A model generated the notes under the pieces. It was not told the DNA's origin. It saw nothing but the letters and a program-made list of their open reading frames with translations, and did no database searches. The position numbers were made by a program, and so were the translations under genes. Positions 44,191 through 51,447 of a stretch of 64,000 bases of DNA are shown one piece after another. The DNA is from Janthinobacterium sp. 64. Lineage in GTDB: Bacteria > Pseudomonadota > Gammaproteobacteria > Burkholderiales > Burkholderiaceae_D. The stretch covers positions 4,278,001-4,342,000 of the forward strand of contig NZ_PHUG01000001.1 of assembly GCF_002813325.1 (NCBI RefSeq), written 5' to 3'. How positions within the stretch are numbered: the stretch's first letter is position 1; the number at the start of each line of letters is the position of its first letter.

Positions 44191-45821
44191 TGCGCCGCGC
44201 GCTGGTCCTGCTCGACACGGATTTTGACGGTGCCCGCTTTGGCGCAGCCTGTACGGTGCATGGCGGGCGGCGCCTGCATTACATCGCGCTGGCGCCGCGT
44301 CCCGTCGATGCCAGCCACTTGCCCGAGCAGTGGCGCGCACAGTGGCCGCTTTGCGTGCCGGGCTTGCACCGCATGGTCTCGCACGACGGCCTCGTCACGC
44401 TCGATGTACTGATCGGCGAGCCCGATGCCTGCCTGGCGCAATTGTCGGCGCGCGTCGATGAAGTGCTGCTGGCTTGGGTGCCCGCCGCCATGGCGGTGCT
44501 GGCGCGCCTGATGGTCGATGGCGGCCAGTTGCATGCGGTGCACCTGGACGAGACACAGCGTGCGGCGCTGCAACAGACTGGTTTTGTCTTCGACGAAAGC
44601 CGCTTGCGCGCCGTGTTTTATGCGCGGCGCGCAGAGTACGCGGCCGTCACCGTACCCGAGCGGCGCGCCATCGTCATCGGCGCGGGCGTGGCCGGCGCGG
44701 CCGCCTGCGAACGGCTGGCCGCGCGCGGCTGGAAGGTGACCCTGATCGAGCGCCACGCGCAGCCGGCCAGCGCAGCGTCGGGCAACCTGGCCGGCATCTT
44801 CATGCCGTTGCTGTCGAAGGACGACAACATCGCCACGCGCCTGACGCGCGCCGCCTATCTGTACTCGCTGCGCCGCTGGAAAGACCTGGGCGGCATCGGC
44901 ACCGCCATCGAGGGCGCGCAAAGCGGCGTGCTGCACCTGGCGCGCGACGGCGCGCATGCGCAGGTGCAGCGGCAGATCGCCGCCAGCGGCCTGTATCCGC
45001 GCGAATTCGCCCGCTGGCTGGAAGCGCCCGAGGCGAGCGCCATGCTGGGCGCGCCGGCGCCCGATGGCGCCTGGTGGTTCGCACAGGGCGGCTGGGCACG
45101 TCCGTCTTCCGTCTGCGCGGCCATGCTGGACGCCTGCGGTGGCTTGCTCACGCGGCGCTTTTCCAGCAGCGCCCTGCGCCTGGAGCGTGGCGATGCGGAG
45201 TGGCTGGTGCGCGATGCGGACGGTGCCCTGATCGCGGCCGCGCCCAACGTCATCCTGGCGGCAGGCACGGGTGCCGTCGATTTCGAACAGGCGGCGGGTC
45301 TGCCACTGGACGCCGTGCGCGGCCAGGTCACGCACCTGGCCGAAGGCAGTCTGCCGTCGTTGCCGTTCGTCGTCTGCCGCGAAGCCTACATGACGCCGGC
45401 ATACCAGGGCGTCATGTGTGTGGGCGCGACCTATGCTGCCGATGCGGACAGCAGCCTGCGCATGGATAGCCAGCACGACAATATCGCGAAGATCGCCGAC
45501 ATCCTTGGCGTGACCCCGTTCGAGGCGCCGCTGGCCGGGCGCACGGGCTTTCGCTGCATGGCGCCGGACCGCCTGCCGCTGGCGGGCGCCTTGCCCGACC
45601 CCGGCGTGCCAGGGCGCTGCGAGCGATTGCGCGACGTGCCGCGCTGGCCCGGCCTGTTTGGCTTGCTCGGTTACGCCTCGCGCGGCCTGATCTGGGCCCC
45701 GCTGGCGGCCGAACTGCTGGCGTGCCAGCTGGAGGGGGAGCCGCTGCCGCTGGAGAGTCAATTGGCCGCTGCGTTGGATCCTGCGCGGTTTTTATTACGA
45801 GAGCGCCGTAGAGCATATTGA
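44190..45821 (+). CDS. mnmC: MnmC-like tRNA modification FAD oxidoreductase with an eroded methyltransferase domain
   Basis: A 543-residue protein. Residues ~155-530 are the MnmC FAD-dependent oxidoreductase domain: GAGVAGAAACERLAARGW (FAD motif), SGNLAGIFMPLLSKDDN, QGGWARPSSVC, and GLLGYASRGLIWAPL. It converts cmnm5 to nm5 at tRNA wobble U34. The first ~150 residues align in length and end-features (QWRAQWPLCVPGLHRM, LARLMVDGG) with the later part of the MnmC methyltransferase domain. They lack the N-terminal ~60 residues, the SAM glycine motif and the DGFAP segment. So the second (methyl transfer) step is probably not made by this protein. Confidence 0.85.
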   Translation: MRRALVLLDTDFDGARFGAACTVHGGRRLHYIALAPRPVDASHLPEQWRAQWPLCVPGLHRMVSHDGLVTLDVLIGEPDACLAQLSARVDEVLLAWVPAAMAVLARLMVDGGQLHAVHLDETQRAALQQTGFVFDESRLRAVFYARRAEYAAVTVPERRAIVIGAGVAGAAACERLAARGWKVTLIERHAQPASAASGNLAGIFMPLLSKDDNIATRLTRAAYLYSLRRWKDLGGIGTAIEGAQSGVLHLARDGAHAQVQRQIAASGLYPREFARWLEAPEASAMLGAPAPDGAWWFAQGGWARPSSVCAAMLDACGGLLTRRFSSSALRLERGDAEWLVRDADGALIAAAPNVILAAGTGAVDFEQAAGLPLDAVRGQVTHLAEGSLPSLPFVVCREAYMTPAYQGVMCVGATYAADADSSLRMDSQHDNIAKIADILGVTPFEAPLAGRTGFRCMAPDRLPLAGALPDPGVPGRCERLRDVPRWPGLFGLLGYASRGLIWAPLAAELLACQLEGEPLPLESQLAAALDPARFLLRERRRAY

Positions 45822-45858
45822 TTCTGGTCTTTTTCTAATTTACCCCCAAAACAAGTTC

Positions 45859-45926
45859 TGGGGTCAGACCCGGCGGGGGAATATGCCCCAATGGGGCATA
45901 TTCCGATTCCGAAGGAACTGACCCCA
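45859..45926. repeat. Nested inverted repeat (REP-like) between mnmC and the rhodanese gene
   Basis: The outer arms TGGGGTCAG (45859-45867) and CTGACCCCA (45918-45926) enclose a perfect inner hairpin with arms GAATATGCCCCA and TGGGGCATATTC (45879-45903) around a single A. The GGGGTC/GACCCC core resembles the arms of the repeat at 23435 and 56293. No T-run follows, so it is more likely a dispersed repeat than a terminator. Confidence 0.6.
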
Positions 45927-46035
45927 TATACGTTTTCCAGCTTTCCAAACTCTTTTTAATTTGTTTTCCGAACAACATAAGTTCGCTACAGTGGACTCGT
46001 GCTGGTTTTTGACGACGGAATAAAGAGGTGGAAAG

Positions 46036-46533
46036 ATGGCTGCTGCAGAACTGATTTTCGATCCCCGCGCCGCCCACGGCGAGGCGGCTTTTGACGAAGT
46101 GCTCCATCTCGCGCGCAGCCAGGCGCAGGCGCAGGGCTTGCCGTATGCGGGCATCGTCAGCGCGCAGGATGCATGGCAGCTGGTGCAGGCTGGCAAAGCC
46201 GTGCTGGTTGACGTGCGCACGCATGAAGAACGCACGTTCGTCGGCTACGTGCCCGCCTCGCTGCACGTGGCGTGGGCGACCGGCACGTCCATGCACCGCA
46301 ATCCCCGCTTTACGCGCGAACTGGAAGCGAAGGCGGGCGGCAAGGATGCCGTCGTGGTGCTGCTGTGCCGCAGCGGCAAGCGCTCGGCCCTGGCCGCCGA
46401 AGCGGCCGCCAAGGCCGGTTTCACGCACGTCTTCAACATCGCGCAAGGCTTCGAGGGCGATCTCGACGCGCAGCAGCAGCGTGGCCACAGCGGTGGCTGG
46501 CGCTGGCATGCGCTGCCCTGGCTGCAAGATTAA
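46036..46533 (+). CDS. Rhodanese-like sulfurtransferase
   Basis: A 165-residue single-domain rhodanese. The segment LVDVRTHEERTFVGYVPASLHV leads into the persulfide-carrying Cys111 in the CRSGKRS loop. It transfers sulfane sulfur, probably to a thiol acceptor. It heads the rhodanese / serine acetyltransferase / XRE / encapsulin / cysteine desulfurase group, with 19 bases to the next gene, so it likely handles sulfur going into or out of the nanocompartment. GAGGTGG precedes the ATG. Confidence 0.92.
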   Translation: MAAAELIFDPRAAHGEAAFDEVLHLARSQAQAQGLPYAGIVSAQDAWQLVQAGKAVLVDVRTHEERTFVGYVPASLHVAWATGTSMHRNPRFTRELEAKAGGKDAVVVLLCRSGKRSALAAEAAAKAGFTHVFNIAQGFEGDLDAQQQRGHSGGWRWHALPWLQD

Positions 46534-46552
46534 ATCTCTTCCCGGAGCCACC

Positions 46553-47548
46553 ATGAACCAGCGAGCCATTCCCCCCGCCTCCCTTGCCGCGCAGCCGCAA
46601 TGGGAACTGCGCCAGATCGTCGATGAATTGCGCGCCGTGCGCGCGCAGTGGCGCGAAGGGCTGGCCAGCAACCAGGAGTGCGGCGCGCGCCAATTCCCGT
46701 CGCGCCAGCATTTGCGCGACATCATCAACGCCTTGTGCGCGGCCCTGTTTCCGATGCGCCTCGGCCCCCTCGACCTGCAGCAGGAGAGCGAGGATTTCTT
46801 TGTCGGCCACACGCTCGACACGACCCTCACGGGCTTGCACGAACAGGTGCGGCGCGAACTCAGTTACCACGCGCGCCAGCATGGCTTGCAGCAGACGGTC
46901 TCCATCGAACAGCAGGCGCTGGCCATCGTGCAGCGCTTCGCCCGCGCGCTGCCGCGCATCCGCGCCCAGCTCGATACGGACGTAGCGGCCGCCTTCCATG
47001 GCGATCCGGCCGCGCACAGCGTCGATGAAGTGCTGCTGTGCTATCCGGGCATCCTGGCCATCATCCATTACCGCCTCGCGCACACCTTGCATGCACTGGG
47101 CGCGCCGCTGGTGGCGCGCATCATCGCCGAAGTGGCCCATTCGCAGACGGGCATCGACATCCATCCGGGCGCCATCATCGGCAGCAGCTTTTTCATCGAC
47201 CATGGCACGGGCGTGGTGATCGGCGAGACGGCCATCCTCGGCGACAGGGTGCGCATTTACCAAGCCGTCACCCTGGGCGCCAAGCGCTTTCCCGCCGGTG
47301 CCGACGGCATGCTGAAAAAGGGACTGGCGCGCCATCCCATCGTGCAGGACGACGTGGTCATCTACGCGGGCGCGACGATCCTGGGGCGGGTCACCATCGG
47401 CCAGGGCTCCGTCATCGGCGGCAATGTCTGGCTGACCCGCAGCGTGGCGCCAGGCAGCCATGTCACGCAAGCGCACAACCAGCAGGAGGCGCCCGATTTG
47501 CCAGAGTCGCCGGCGCCATCGCCCCCCGCTTTTGCCCACCACCGATGA
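46553..47548 (+). CDS. epsC: Serine O-acetyltransferase (EpsC/CysE type)
   Basis: A 331-residue left-handed beta-helix acetyltransferase with an extended N-terminal helical domain (residues ~1-165). The hexapeptide repeats span ~185-285: IDIHPGAIIGSSFFIDHGTGVVIGET split over two coils, then RIYQAVTLGAKRF and IYAGATILGRVTIGQGSVIGG. It acetylates serine with acetyl-CoA, the first step of cysteine synthesis, and so supplies the substrate for the desulfurase two genes later. CGGAG lies eight bases upstream of the ATG. The C-terminal ~20 residues are Pro-rich. Confidence 0.92.
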   Translation: MNQRAIPPASLAAQPQWELRQIVDELRAVRAQWREGLASNQECGARQFPSRQHLRDIINALCAALFPMRLGPLDLQQESEDFFVGHTLDTTLTGLHEQVRRELSYHARQHGLQQTVSIEQQALAIVQRFARALPRIRAQLDTDVAAAFHGDPAAHSVDEVLLCYPGILAIIHYRLAHTLHALGAPLVARIIAEVAHSQTGIDIHPGAIIGSSFFIDHGTGVVIGETAILGDRVRIYQAVTLGAKRFPAGADGMLKKGLARHPIVQDDVVIYAGATILGRVTIGQGSVIGGNVWLTRSVAPGSHVTQAHNQQEAPDLPESPAPSPPAFAHHR

Positions 47549-47555
47549 GGACAGC

Positions 47556-47780
47556 ATGTTGATCAAACAGTTTGGACTGGCCGTGCGCCAGTTGCGCGAA
47601 GGGCATGGCTGGTCGCAGGAGCGCCTGGCCGAAGCGGCCGACTTGAACCGCTCCTTCATCGGCGAAATCGAGCGGGGCGCCGCCACGCCGTCGCTGCTGA
47701 CGGTGGAAAAGCTGGCCATCGCGCTGGGCGTCGGCCTGGCGGGATTGATGGCCCGCTGCGAACCGGAGCTGGTGGATTAG
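47556..47780 (+). CDS. Small XRE family regulator of the sulfur/encapsulin locus
   Basis: A 74-residue single-domain Cro/CI-type helix-turn-helix protein: FGLAVRQLREGHGWSQERLAEAADLNRSFIGEIERGAATPSLLTVEKLAIALG spread over the five-helix fold (residues ~5-58). There is no sensor domain. It starts seven bases after the acetyltransferase gene with a GAGGA site and ends 113 bases before the encapsulin gene, so local control of this locus is the simplest inference. Confidence 0.85.
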   Translation: MLIKQFGLAVRQLREGHGWSQERLAEAADLNRSFIGEIERGAATPSLLTVEKLAIALGVGLAGLMARCEPELVD

Positions 47781-47893
47781 GTCGATGATAACGCCGCGTT
47801 GATGGCGATAGCATGTTGAGGAAAAGAGAGGGGTACTCGATACTTTATTCGTTTTTCAGATAAGCATATTCACTTTTCTCATCAGGAGTAGTC

Positions 47894-48823
47894 ATGACAG
47901 CAGCAACAGAGAACCAGTTCGCGCTGGGCGATAACGCCGCGCGCCAGCTGGCCAATGCAAGCAAGAGCGTCCCCCAGTTATCCACGATCACGCCGCGCTG
48001 GCTCGTGCACCTGCTGCAATGGCTGCCCGTGGAAGCGGGTATCTACCGCCTCAATCGCGTGAAGAACCCAAAGGACGTGCGCGTGGCCTGCTCGCAGCGC
48101 GACGAGTCGGAACTGCCGCAAACCTTCGTCGACTATGACGAGCAGCCGCGCGAGTATTTTCTCAATGCCGTCAGCACGGTGCTCGACGTGCATACGCGCG
48201 TGTCGGACCTGTACAGCAGCCCGCACGACCAGATCAAGGAGCAGCTGCGCCTGACCATCGAGACGATCAAGGAGCGCCAGGAAAGCGAACTGATCAACAA
48301 TCCCGATTACGGCCTGCTGGCCAGCGTGCACGACGACCAGCGCATTTTTACGCTGACGGGCGCGCCGACGCCGGACGACCTCGATGAACTGCTGACGAAA
48401 GTGTGGAAGGAACCGGGCTTCTTCCTCGCGCACCCGCTGGCGATTGCCGCCTTTGGCCGCGAATGCACGCGCCGCGGCGTGCCGCCGCCGACCGTCAGCC
48501 TGTTCGGTTCGCAGTTTTTGACGTGGCGCGGCGTGCCGCTGGTGCCGTCCGATAAACTGCCGATCGAAGACGGCAAGACGAAAATCATCTTGCTGCGCGC
48601 GGGCGAACAGCGCCAGGGCGTGATCGGCCTGTTCCAGCCTGGCCTGGCGGGCGAGCAAAGCCCGGGCCTGTCCGTGCGCTTCATGGGCATCAACCGCCAC
48701 GCGATTTCGTCCTATCTGATTTCGCTGTATTGCTCATTGGCCGTGCTGACCGACGATGCGCTGGCCGTACTGGAAGACGTGGAGATCGGTAAATACCATG
48801 ACTACCCAGACACCTACAAGTGA
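47894..48823 (+). CDS. srpI: Family 2A encapsulin shell protein (SrpI type)
   Basis: A 309-residue HK97-fold shell protein resembling SrpI of cyanobacteria and related Family 2A encapsulins. Markers are LSTITPRWLVHLLQWLPVEAGIYRLN near the N-terminus, the E-loop region around YFLNAVSTVLDVHTRVSDLYS, the long spine helix IKERQESELINN, LFGSQFLTWRGVPLVPSDKLPI and the end of the domain GINRHAISSYLISLYCSLAVL. The length matches the ~305-residue family norm. Such proteins form ~25 nm icosahedral shells. The desulfurase gene starts inside its 3' end (26-base overlap), which couples shell and cargo production. CAGGAG lies eight bases before the ATG. Confidence 0.93.
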   Translation: MTAATENQFALGDNAARQLANASKSVPQLSTITPRWLVHLLQWLPVEAGIYRLNRVKNPKDVRVACSQRDESELPQTFVDYDEQPREYFLNAVSTVLDVHTRVSDLYSSPHDQIKEQLRLTIETIKERQESELINNPDYGLLASVHDDQRIFTLTGAPTPDDLDELLTKVWKEPGFFLAHPLAIAAFGRECTRRGVPPPTVSLFGSQFLTWRGVPLVPSDKLPIEDGKTKIILLRAGEQRQGVIGLFQPGLAGEQSPGLSVRFMGINRHAISSYLISLYCSLAVLTDDALAVLEDVEIGKYHDYPDTYK

Positions 48824-50570
48824 TGGCGCGGCGGCCTTGTCCGCCGTCCCGTTCTTGCCCGATGAAGCGACCCTGAACCGCCTGGCGGGCGAGTTTTTCG
48901 CGCGCCTTCCCGGGTTAGATAAGTCGCCCAGCCTCGGCGGTTCCGGCAGCGTGCTCGATGCGGCGCCCCGCTATGCGAACCGTCCGCCGCCGCAGCCCGG
49001 CCCTTCGTTTGCCGCCATCGCCCCCGGCGTGGCGACGGCGCAGGTGCCGCCCGTGACGGCGCCGCTGGAGACACCGATTGCGCCGGCGCCGGCCTCCGTG
49101 CCGACGCCGCGCGCATCCGCCCTCGGTGCGCCGTCGCCCTACTATTTTGTCGGCGGCGCGCATGGCTATCCCGCATCGAACGGCAAGCTCGATGGCCTGG
49201 CGCAGCAGGGGCTGGGGCAGGCGATACCCGATGCCACGCCGCAGGGCGCGCCCGCGCGCCAACTGCCCGTATCGCCAGCCAGTGGCCAGCCCGCCTTCTA
49301 TTTCCAGACCGAGCTGCCTGCGCGGCAGCAGGGGCATGGACAAACCCCCGCGCCGTTCGACGTGCATGCCGTGCGGCGCGATTTTCCCGTGCTGGCGGAG
49401 CGCGTCAACGGCAAGCCTTTGGCCTGGTTCGACAATGCGGCCACCACGCACAAGCCGCAATCGGTGATCGACCGCGTGTCGTATTTCTACGCGCACGAGA
49501 ATTCGAACATCCACCGCGCCGCGCACGCACTGGCGGCGCGCGCCAGCGACGCGTATGAAGCGGCACGCGCCAAGGTGGCTAACTTCCTCGGCGCCGCCTC
49601 GGCCAATGAAATCATCTTCGTGCGCGGCGCCACCGAGGGCATCAATCTGGTCGCCAATACCTTTGGCCGCAAGTACATCGGCAGCGGCGACGAGATCATC
49701 GTCTCGCAGCTTGAGCACCATGCCAACATCGTGCCGTGGCAGCAGCTGGCGGCGGAAAAGGGCGCGATTCTGCGCGTGATTCCCGTCGACGACAGCGGGC
49801 AAATCCTGCTCGATGAATTCCGCAAGCTGCTCAACGGCCGCACCAAACTGGTGTCCGTGACGCAGGTGTCGAATGCGCTGGGGACGGTCACGCCCGTGGC
49901 GCAGATCATCGCGCTGGCGCATGCGGCCGGCGTGCGCGTGCTGGTCGATGGGGCGCAAGCCGTGTCGCACCTGCGCGTCGACGTGCAGGCGCTGGGTGCC
50001 GATTTTTACGTGTTTTCAGGGCATAAAGTGTTTGGCCCGACGGGCATCGGCGCCGTGTATGGCAAGGCGGACTTGCTGGAGCAATTGCCGCCGTGGCAGG
50101 GCGGCGGCAACATGATCGCCGACGTGACGTTCGAGCGCACCGTCTACCAGGGCGTGCCGAATCGTTTCGAGGCGGGCACGGGCAATATCGCCGATGCCGT
50201 GGGCCTCGGCGCGGCCATCGATTACGTGCAGCGCATCGGCCTGGACAACATCGCCGCTTACGAGCACGCGCTGCTGGACTACGCGACGCAGCAGCTGCAG
50301 GCGATTGCCGGCGTGCGCCTGATCGGCACGGCGCTGGACAAGGCCAGCGTGGCTTCCTTCGTGCTGGCCGGTTACGAGCCGGCGGAAGTGGGACGCGCCC
50401 TGAACGACGAGGGCATCGCCGTGCGTTCGGGCCACCACTGCGCCCAGCCGATTTTGCGCCGCTTCGGCGTGGAAGCGACCGTGCGGCCATCGTTCGCCTT
50501 CTACAACACGTATGAGGAAATCGACCGCATGATCGCGGTGGTGCGCCGTCTGGCGGGTGCGCGCCGCTGA
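48798..50570 (+). CDS. Encapsulated cysteine desulfurase with N-terminal cargo-loading extension (SufS-like)
   Basis: A 590-residue protein. Residues ~187-590 are a SufS/group II cysteine desulfurase, with PLP-Lys410 in FSGHKVFGPTG and catalytic Cys548 in RSGHHCAQPIL. It converts cysteine to alanine and enzyme-bound persulfide. Residues 1-186 form a Pro/Ala-rich, mostly disordered extension absent from ordinary SufS. It holds a short helix (LPDEATLNRLAGEFFARLPG, 20-39) and two aromatic motifs, YYFVGG (115-120) and FYFQTE (167-172). In Family 2A encapsulins this extension targets the enzyme into the shell. The start is the ATG after GGAG inside the encapsulin gene. Confidence 0.94.
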   Translation: MTTQTPTSDGAAALSAVPFLPDEATLNRLAGEFFARLPGLDKSPSLGGSGSVLDAAPRYANRPPPQPGPSFAAIAPGVATAQVPPVTAPLETPIAPAPASVPTPRASALGAPSPYYFVGGAHGYPASNGKLDGLAQQGLGQAIPDATPQGAPARQLPVSPASGQPAFYFQTELPARQQGHGQTPAPFDVHAVRRDFPVLAERVNGKPLAWFDNAATTHKPQSVIDRVSYFYAHENSNIHRAAHALAARASDAYEAARAKVANFLGAASANEIIFVRGATEGINLVANTFGRKYIGSGDEIIVSQLEHHANIVPWQQLAAEKGAILRVIPVDDSGQILLDEFRKLLNGRTKLVSVTQVSNALGTVTPVAQIIALAHAAGVRVLVDGAQAVSHLRVDVQALGADFYVFSGHKVFGPTGIGAVYGKADLLEQLPPWQGGGNMIADVTFERTVYQGVPNRFEAGTGNIADAVGLGAAIDYVQRIGLDNIAAYEHALLDYATQQLQAIAGVRLIGTALDKASVASFVLAGYEPAEVGRALNDEGIAVRSGHHCAQPILRRFGVEATVRPSFAFYNTYEEIDRMIAVVRRLAGARR

Positions 50571-50727
50571 TCTTGCCTGCTTGTCAAGCTGATGCCGCCC
50601 TGGCGCAAGCTGGGGTGGCATTGTTGCGTCATGTCACGGTCTTTGCGCGCGACTGGCTGGCGTCCGCAGGCTGGCGGTATAATTTATCCTTGGCAATATT
50701 GAAGCTGCGGCCCCAAGGAGATATCCG

Positions 50728-51447
50728 GTGGAAAATCAACACAGCTCGCCCGAGCTTTTCCTGTTCCTGGCGTCGACCGTGCACGACATGAAAAATTCGA
50801 TCAGCGTGGTCAGCGGCACTTTGGAGTCGCTGCTGGCGGCCGAGCAGGCGAAAACAGCCCCCCAGGCCGACCCCGCCTACCTGCAGATGGCGCAAATGCT
50901 GTACCAGACCAAGCGCCTCAACGATAACCTGATCCAGCTGCTGGCCCTGTACAAGGAAGTGGGCAAGCCCGGCTACCCGTTTGACGTGCAGCCGCAACTG
51001 GTGAGCCAGGTGCTCGACCAGGTGGTGGACCAGGAAAAGATCCTGCTGGCCTCGAAAGGCATCGGCCTGGAGACGGCGTGCCCGCCGGAGCTGATCTGGA
51101 CCCTCGATGAAGACCTGGTCATCGGCGTGCTGGCGCATGCGATCAATAACGCCATCCGCTACACGAAGGACACGATACGCCTGTCGGTGCAGGAGCACGA
51201 CGGCATGCTCGAACTGCGCGTGGACGACAATGGCGACGGCTACTCGCAGGCGCTGCTCGACGCGGGCAGCGCCGCCATGGATGGCATGGCGGCCGGCGTG
51301 AACTTTTCCACCAACAGCACGGGACTGGGCCTGTATTTCTCCAGCGAAGTGGCGAAGATGCACAAGCACCGGGGCAGCAGCGGCAGCATCGCCCTGGAAA
51401 ATGGCGGCGCGCTGGGCGGCGGCTGTTTCATCCTGCGCCTGCCCTGA
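50728..51447 (+). CDS. Soluble sensor histidine kinase (GTG start)
   Basis: A 239-residue kinase made only of a dimerisation/phosphoacceptor helix pair and an HATPase domain. The His is in ASTVHDMKNSISVVSG, the N-box is LAHAINNAIRY, and the G1/G2 boxes are LRVDDNGDGYS and STGLGLYFSSEVAKMH. There is no transmembrane or PAS domain, so the signal is cytoplasmic or delivered by a partner. AAGGAG lies eight bases before the GTG. The REC-TPR gene follows after 11 bases and is its likely partner. Confidence 0.9.
   Translation: MENQHSSPELFLFLASTVHDMKNSISVVSGTLESLLAAEQAKTAPQADPAYLQMAQMLYQTKRLNDNLIQLLALYKEVGKPGYPFDVQPQLVSQVLDQVVDQEKILLASKGIGLETACPPELIWTLDEDLVIGVLAHAINNAIRYTKDTIRLSVQEHDGMLELRVDDNGDGYSQALLDAGSAAMDGMAAGVNFSTNSTGLGLYFSSEVAKMHKHRGSSGSIALENGGALGGGCFILRLP

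What the first reader, a model, noticed from the sequence alone, without database searches (positions are those of the whole stretch)
46036..50570. Family 2A encapsulin locus with dedicated sulfur metabolism and cysteine desulfurase cargo
Five consecutive same-strand genes encode rhodanese, serine O-acetyltransferase, a tiny XRE regulator, an SrpI-type shell protein and a cysteine desulfurase carrying a ~185-residue disordered N-terminus. Family 2A encapsulins are known to enclose such desulfurases and to store elemental sulfur. The set here covers precursor supply (O-acetylserine), sulfur release (desulfurase), compartment and sulfur transfer (rhodanese). That makes it a compact candidate for a regulated sulfur-storage organelle.
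Basis: partly seen in the sequence, partly recalled or inferred. Interest (0 to 1): 0.92.

Follow-up and report, generated by a model that had tools for sequence, protein, structure and literature searches.

The report
Sulfur encapsulin operon with own switch
This stretch of a Janthinobacterium genome holds a known kind of protein compartment that encloses a sulfur-releasing enzyme, and beside it sit a very small DNA-binding protein and what looks like its own landing site on the compartment's promoter, which would give a simple way to test how the compartment is switched on.

Summary
46036-50570 encodes rhodanese, serine O-acetyltransferase, a 74-aa XRE protein, a Family 2A encapsulin shell and its cysteine desulfurase cargo; NCBIfam's dedicated shell and cargo models exceed their cut-offs. 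This gene set is in print: SAT and rhodanese are reported as the most enriched accessory genes of such operons (PMC8346489, passages). As a compartment it is ordinary.

Less ordinary is the XRE gene. A sequence TTGRTGGC-nATA-GC[AC][GT]GTTGA (window 47799-47819) overlaps the -35 of a putative promoter between XRE and shell. It occurs upstream of the shell in 49 of 51 relatives with the XRE and 0 of 29 without (two of the 29 are cut off too near the shell to judge). A second draw gave 14 of 15 against 0 of 15 (6 of those 30 repeat the first set). A blind search of 399 genomes gave 9 sites, all between XRE and shell, one being the window's. The three XRE-bearing exceptions have a divergent, decayed or frame-broken XRE. 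Its best PDB matches are restriction-modification controller proteins. I infer a dedicated regulator of the shell-desulfurase promoter, more likely an activator. Binding and direction are untested.

The parts
46036..46533 (+). rhodanese-like protein, 165 aa, with a CRSGKR loop (active-site reading recalled)
   Evidence: Pfam PF00581 55.1 bits; open frame
46553..47548 (+). serine O-acetyltransferase (EpsC/CysE-like), 331 aa
   Evidence: NF041874 151.9 bits against cut-off 150; cysE 160.8 against 210.65
47556..47780 (+). 74-aa XRE (HTH_3) DNA-binding protein, starts 7 bases after the SAT stop; proposed regulator of the shell promoter
   Evidence: Pfam HTH_3 55.0 bits; PDB best C.BclI, C.AhdI; model pLDDT 94.0, Foldseek best C.BclI and C.AhdI
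47799..47819 (+). conserved element TTGATGGCGATAGCATGTTGA, proposed operator of the XRE
   Evidence: 49 of 51 XRE+ and 0 of 29 XRE- loci; once without mismatch in own genome; 9 of 9 blind hits, the window's included, between XRE and shell
47816..47821 (+). putative -35 hexamer TTGAGG, its first four bases being the end of the element
   Evidence: TTGA then GAnAnT after 17 bases in 22 and after 18 in 3 of 34 dereplicated loci; 9 of 34 show neither
47839..47844 (+). putative -10 hexamer GATACT
   Evidence: not found by the stricter consensus scan
47884..47888 (+). AGGAG, likely ribosome-binding site of the shell gene
   Evidence: sequence
47894..48823 (+). Family 2A encapsulin shell protein (SrpI-type), 309 aa
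   Evidence: NF041162 543.1 bits, cut-off 380; 8t6r 596.5 bits
48798..50570 (+). cysteine desulfurase cargo, 590 aa; residues 1-185 Ala/Pro-rich extension with cargo motif counterparts at 26-35 (LNRLAGEFFA) and 113-117 (SPYYF)
   Evidence: NF041166 880 bits, cut-off 800; motifs
45987..45992 (+). TACAGT in a block conserved upstream of the rhodanese gene in Janthinobacterium; possible -10 of the upstream promoter (low confidence)
   Evidence: AAGTTCGCTACAGT invariant in 12 of 12 aligned sequences, the window and 11 of the 12 named Janthinobacterium loci

Best explanation
The locus is a Family 2A desulfurase-encapsulin operon with its own switch. Shown by sequence: shell, desulfurase with cargo motifs, rhodanese and SAT. 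Strongly supported by comparison: the 74-aa XRE protein and the element at 47799-47819 are a regulator-site pair, because they occur and decay together. Inferred: the XRE is made with rhodanese and SAT from an upstream promoter, binds as a dimer at the element centred about 42 bases before the shell transcript start, and touches sigma-70 region 4 through its SQE segment as controller proteins and lambda CI do. It thereby turns on shell and desulfurase together, after the acceptor and supply enzymes are already being made. The desulfurase is then packaged through its disordered N-terminus, and sulfur taken from cysteine is held in or passed on from the shell, the rhodanese being the likely acceptor.
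For: Element within 420 bases upstream of the shell: 49 of 51 XRE+ and 0 of 29 XRE- loci; permuted patterns hit on average 0.015 (at most 2) of 51. Second draw: 14 of 15 and 0 of 15; without the 6 loci that repeat the first set, 12 of 13 and 0 of 11. Blind pattern search of 399 genomes: 9 hits, backward control 0, 9 of 9 between XRE and shell, one of them the window's own. In the 37 same-genus genomes seen by both calls the same 27 hold shell and element and the same 10 hold neither. Exceptions fit: L023 is changed in both the SQE and the recognition segment; in L124 XRE and element are both decayed; in L075 the frame is broken. L019, without XRE, keeps -35 and -10 but not the upstream part of the element. 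SQE and the recognition segment are kept in 64 of 66 XRE rows, the two others being L023 and L124. Best fold matches C.BclI and C.AhdI. C.Esp1396I uses GAC-TATA-GTC sites with an outer TG (PMC3758141, passages); C proteins activate through an SQE-sigma contact (PMC4824078, passages).
Against: No binding, transcript or phenotype data. The element lies next to or inside the 3' end of the XRE gene, so one deletion can remove both; only L124, L075 and L019 speak against that. Two of the 29 XRE- loci, L042 and L062, begin 206 and 90 bases before the shell, so XRE and element could be missing only because the contig ends; without them it is 0 of 27. On well-supported branches of the shell tree only 4 independent pairs exist; they agree (3.9 on average, none opposed) but the sign test is p 0.125. 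The element needs 16 changes on the tree, the XRE 14. SQE is common in HTH_3 proteins (recalled). The element is symmetric only in its middle, and in most Janthinobacterium the middle is GATA or CATA, not TATA. The strict promoter arrangement is seen in 36 of 51 XRE+ loci, and the consensus scan did not report it in the window. C proteins tie in VIA-align Z with other XRE proteins. Homologues of the XRE are many (5617 of 7993 scored) and their neighbours were not looked at.
Confidence: 0.62

Rival explanations
1. The XRE is a repressor: it sits on the element over the -35 and keeps shell and desulfurase off until a sulfur signal or low XRE level frees the promoter.
For: The element overlaps the -35; many XRE proteins are repressors (recalled); a promoter with a TTGA -35 and 17-base spacer could fire unaided. 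L019, without XRE, keeps both hexamers, which suits a promoter freed from repression.
Against: The best symmetry centre is 7.5 bases before the -35 (centre at 1.5, -35 starting at 9), a spacing that suits contact with sigma (lambda OR2-like, recalled); no sensor domain fits in 74 residues; SQE is kept in 64 of 66 rows.
Confidence: 0.28
2. The element is bound by some other factor, or is kept only as a promoter, and the XRE acts elsewhere.
For: No binding data; neighbours on DNA are lost together easily; only 4 well-supported independent pairs.
Against: None of 29 XRE- loci keeps the element, and the promoter arrangement without the element is seen in 1 of 29 (L019); point decay of both in L124; 9 of 9 blind hits next to the XRE.
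Confidence: 0.07
3. Nothing beyond the published operon type: the XRE is a passenger gene and the five genes are one transcript under general sulfur control.
For: The other four gene types are the published set; the S. elongatus shell is induced by sulfate starvation (PMC8049743, passages).
Against: XRE next to the shell in 51 of 80 named loci, in several families, and the conserved promoter-like stretch in front of the shell.
Confidence: 0.03

Closest known systems
Family 2A desulfurase encapsulin of Synechococcus elongatus (SrpI/CyD; PMC8049743, passages)
   Same: Shell 510.3 bits to 6x8m; desulfurase with disordered N-terminus; motifs LARLANEFFS and AASPYYFLDG have counterparts LNRLAGEFFA and GAPSPYYFVGG here
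   Different: 'XRE' and 'helix-turn-helix' have 0 occurrences in that main text; there the gene is plasmid-borne
Acinetobacter baumannii sulfur-storing encapsulin (8t6r; Sci Adv 2024, seen only as a citation, paper not held)
   Same: Closest solved shell, 596.5 bits over residues 6-309
   Different: Whether its operon has an XRE was not examined
Family 2A desulfurase operons as surveyed in PMC8346489 (passages)
   Same: SAT and rhodanese reported as the most enriched accessory genes; 1281 such operons
   Different: 'XRE' has 0 occurrences in its main text; supplementary figures not seen
Restriction-modification controller (C) proteins C.BclI, C.AhdI, C.Esp1396I
   Same: Size, fold (TM by query: C.BclI 0.85-0.88, C.AhdI 0.79-0.82, C.Esp1396I 0.81-0.88), SQE segment, TATA-centred site touching a -35
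   Different: No restriction or methylase gene among the neighbours scanned; the strong site lies after its own gene and before the shell; GGC/GC[AC] instead of GAC/GTC beside the centre
E. coli SutR (YdcN), regulator of sulfur utilization
   Same: XRE family; sources name 4 of the 120 listed homologues so (P0054, P0069, P0079, P0089)
   Different: 178 aa; its S. elongatus relative is described with a cupin sensor domain, absent here; the name looks like automatic annotation

Membership tests
Family 2A encapsulin shell | matches the curated Family 2A model above its cut-off, and better than Family 2B | tested here: met
   NF041162 543.1 (cut-off 380) against NF041163 429.5 (cut-off 400)
Family 2A encapsulin shell | no cyclic-nucleotide-binding domain in the shell | tested here: met
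   309 aa, only PF19307 found
Family 2A encapsulin shell | HK97 fold | tested here: inconclusive
   homologous over residues 6-309 to a solved shell, but own model failed, pLDDT 33.2
Family 2A encapsulin shell | assembles into ~25 nm icosahedra | not testable with these tools
   needs expression and microscopy
Family 2A cargo desulfurase | curated cargo model above cut-off | tested here: met
   NF041166 880 against 800
Family 2A cargo desulfurase | N-terminal extension with the two published motifs | tested here: met
   counterparts at residues 26 and 113; by my strict patterns motif 1 in 53 and motif 2 in 38 of the 73 relatives examined, of 80 loci; disorder itself was not computed
Family 2A cargo desulfurase | is packaged in the shell | not testable with these tools
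   needs co-purification
Restriction-modification controller (C) protein | small HTH-only protein with C-protein fold and SQE segment | tested here: met
   74 aa
Restriction-modification controller (C) protein | encoded with restriction endonuclease and methylase genes | tested here: not met
   neighbours scanned are SAT, rhodanese, encapsulin shell and desulfurase, with MnmC-like, glycosylase, kinase-like and response-regulator genes outside
Restriction-modification controller (C) protein | operator in front of its own gene (autoregulation) | tested here: inconclusive
   the 49 loci with the element have one site within 1 mismatch, before the shell; but in 7 of 12 named Janthinobacterium loci, and in the window at 47550-47562, a 2-mismatch match GACAGCATGTTGA lies over the XRE start codon

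The most novel reading that the evidence does not exclude
A controller-protein-like XRE regulator, of the kind known from restriction-modification systems, is used by many Betaproteobacteria to time the building of a sulfur organelle: rhodanese, SAT and regulator first, then shell and desulfurase together through a dedicated strong site at the shell promoter.
Probability: 0.45. Interest if true: 0.65.

Novelty: new variant of a known kind. Interest (0 to 1): 0.5.

Why it matters
How desulfurase encapsulins outside cyanobacteria are switched on was not described in what I saw of the papers found (searches; open-access library, supplements not seen). A 74-residue regulator with a 21-bp site beside the promoter makes that testable with one protein, one DNA fragment and one reporter. 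It also gives a sequence tag by which operons with and without this regulator can be told apart, and natural losses (L019, L075, L124) to compare.

Tried and rejected
Structure prediction of the shell from 21 sequences failed (pLDDT 33.2); no fold claim rests on it. The consensus promoter scan of 45780-50760 reported one site, on the minus strand (shuffles: mean 0.7), and not the proposed promoter. Beyond the order, 4 further class loci (L157-L160) show neither XRE nor an element closer than 4 mismatches in the stretches held. I considered that the XRE is a toxin-antitoxin antitoxin (TIGR03070 49.8 bits, below its cut-off 71.65); none of the neighbours scanned is a toxin. I considered the SutR name and set it aside as likely automatic annotation. 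A sulfur-regulator site (CysB) upstream of the rhodanese and after the -10 was considered by eye only and is not claimed. A second match to the element in the own genome (3 mismatches, L111) has none of the operon's genes or their flanking genes beside it. The backward control of the genus search gave 1 hit in 40 genomes (G017). A paper holding both 'encapsulin' and 'XRE' (PMC8987985, passages) treats them apart.
Full report
What is there. The window lies in a 6.3 Mb genome in two contigs; the closest named relatives of the shell gene are Janthinobacterium. Five genes follow each other on the + strand: rhodanese, SAT, a 74-aa XRE protein, shell, desulfurase. The XRE start is 7 bases after the SAT stop, and the desulfurase begins inside the shell gene. 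Curated models name the shell (NF041162, 543.1 bits, cut-off 380) and the desulfurase (NF041166, 880 bits, cut-off 800) as Family 2A shell and cargo. The closest solved shell is 8t6r at 596.5 bits. The desulfurase has a 185-residue Ala/Pro-rich extension that carries counterparts of both published cargo motifs. One shell gene is found in the genome. Flanking genes are a DNA-3-methyladenine glycosylase and an MnmC-like oxidoreductase before, and a histidine-kinase-like protein and a response-regulator/TPR protein after.

This much is known. PMC8346489 (passages) counts 1281 Family 2A desulfurase operons, names SAT and rhodanese as the most enriched accessory genes, and already proposes a co-regulated rhodanese as sulfur acceptor. 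PMC8049743 (passages) shows packaging through the N-terminal domain and induction by sulfate starvation in S. elongatus. The paper on elemental sulfur storage was not held; I saw its title in a reference list, with 8t6r named there as the A. baumannii shell, and a one-line citation to sulfur storage.

The XRE gene. In the 80 best named loci (563 candidates confirmed, 80 kept), the XRE is next to the shell in 51 and not found in 29; a profile search of all frames found no XRE homologue in any of the 29 stretches held. Two of the 29, L042 and L062, begin only 206 and 90 bases before the shell, so their XRE could lie off the contig. On the shell tree XRE presence changes at least 14 times, at least 4 forced by well-supported branches.

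The element. Between XRE and shell I found a strongly conserved stretch, TTGRTGGC[TGC]ATAGC[AC][GT]GTTGA, in the window 47799-47819. Within 420 bases upstream of the shell (less where the contig ends) the 13-base core is present with at most 1 mismatch in 49 of 51 XRE+ loci and 0 of 29 XRE- loci (Fisher p 9e-20, which ignores relatedness), or 0 of 27 without the two cut-off loci. Two hundred permuted patterns hit on average 0.015 of 51. Its end, TTGA, is followed in 22 of 34 dereplicated loci by GAnAnT after a spacer of 17 bases and in 3 by 18; 9 show neither. So it looks like the -35 of a sigma-70 promoter. The strict TTGANN-17-GANANT arrangement occurs upstream of the shell in 36 of 51 XRE+ loci and in 1 of 29 XRE- loci, L019.

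Independent checks. (a) A draw of 399 genomes of the order: 39 hold the shell, in 40 places. Loci were returned for 30 places; 15 have the XRE, of which 14 have the element, and 15 lack it, of which none has the element. Six of those 30 share an identical 600-base core with the first set; without them it is 12 of 13 and 0 of 11. The other 10 places were not examined. (b) A blind search of the same 399 genomes for element plus promoter gave 9 sites in 9 genomes, none for the backward control, and 9 of 9 lie between an XRE and a shell gene. One of the 9 is the window's, and at least two (L118, L120) match loci already seen. (c) In the own genome the site occurs once without mismatch; the next, at 3 mismatches, has none of the operon's genes or their flanking genes beside it. 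(d) Among the 37 same-genus genomes in both, the same 27 have shell and element and the same 10 have neither; the backward control there gave 1 hit (G017).

The exceptions. Three XRE+ loci lack the element. L023 has a changed SQE segment (SQG) and a changed recognition segment (SYISEIECG, where most have SY.GE.ERG). L124 has a decayed XRE (SCPGGIERG, extra prolines) and a decayed element (GATAGCATATCGA). In L075 the XRE reading frame is broken. In the reverse direction, L019 (Zoogloea) has no XRE and keeps -35 and -10 but not the upstream part of the element. Of 66 XRE rows, 64 keep both SQE and the recognition segment; the two that do not are L023 and L124. These in-place decays are what sets a regulator-site pair apart from two neighbours lost in one deletion, but they are few.

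What the XRE resembles. By sequence, its best solved relatives are C.BclI and C.AhdI, then a Neisseria regulator. AlphaFold gives a confident five-helix model (pLDDT 94.0), and Foldseek's best matches are again C.BclI (TM 0.88) and C.AhdI (0.82); in the VIA-align list C proteins tie with other XRE proteins. C.Esp1396I recognises GAC and GTC on either side of TATA, with an outer TG, and the TATA of one of its sites forms part of a -35 (PMC3758141, passages). C proteins contact sigma-70 region 4 through SQE (PMC4824078, passages). The element here has a similar plan, GGC-TATA-GC[AC] with an outer TG, in many relatives; in most Janthinobacterium the centre is GATA or CATA, in L011 TATA. Best symmetry is centred at TA|TA, 7.5 bases before the -35. 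With a start 7 bases after the -10 this is about -42, where lambda CI activates (recalled). It works like a controller protein but is not filed as one: no restriction genes are among the neighbours scanned. Whether it also controls its own gene is open: in the window (47550-47562) and in 7 of 12 named Janthinobacterium loci a 2-mismatch copy of the core lies over the XRE start codon, while the other named XRE+ loci show none within 2 mismatches in the 420 bases searched.

How it most likely works. Rhodanese, SAT and XRE are made from an upstream promoter; a block ending in AAGTTCGCTACAGT is invariant in 12 of 12 aligned sequences upstream of the rhodanese, the window and 11 of 12 named Janthinobacterium loci. 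The XRE then acts on the promoter of shell and desulfurase. That is an ordered switch: acceptor and supply enzymes first, compartment and sulfur-releasing enzyme together afterwards. Gene content, the conserved site and the coupling are shown by comparison; binding, direction and timing are inferred. Repression is the main rival.

Limits. The tree gives only 4 well-supported independent pairs; on average 3.9 go the same way, none the other, p 0.125. The element abuts or overlaps the XRE gene end. The shell model failed. The wider XRE family is large (5617 matches among 7993 scored) and its gene neighbours were not examined. Supplements of the encapsulin survey were not seen, so an XRE could be listed there. 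That I found no description of this regulator rests on searches and 57 of an open-access library only.

Noticed in passing
window 47550-47562: GACAGCATGTTGA, two mismatches from the element core, lies over the XRE start codon; also in 7 of 12 named Janthinobacterium loci. A weak second XRE site or a coincidence of coding sequence.
   Followed up: partly
window 47851-47859 and 45932-45940: Both the region after the shell -10 and the region upstream of the rhodanese contain GTTTT(T/C)CAG in A/T-rich surroundings; after the -10 many XRE+ relatives show CTTAT...ATAA. A sulfur-regulator site or a leader structure is possible.
   Followed up: partly
window 45876-45904: GGGGAATATGCCCCAATGGGGCATATTCC, an inverted repeat also present upstream of the rhodanese in L003 and, with one base different, L016, but not in the other 9 aligned Janthinobacterium loci; may be a dispersed repeat.
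   Followed up: no
L018, L021, L022, L024, L025, L027 (Zoogloea and MAGs): Encapsulin loci with rhodanese, XRE, shell and desulfurase but no SAT match in the stretch held; the element is kept.
   Followed up: no
L044, L045, L049, L050, L064, L068 and others: About 1 kb lies between the rhodanese and SAT matches, room for one extra gene not identified here.
   Followed up: no
same-genus genomes G001, G005, G008, G014, G016, G018, G022, G023, G027, G034: 10 of 37 same-genus genomes lack the shell and the element; G014 and G034 are only 82-83% complete, the others 98-100%. The site where the locus would sit was not examined.
   Followed up: no
G000:C1:22797-23711: A second SAT of the same long type, 60% identical, elsewhere in the genome.
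   Followed up: no
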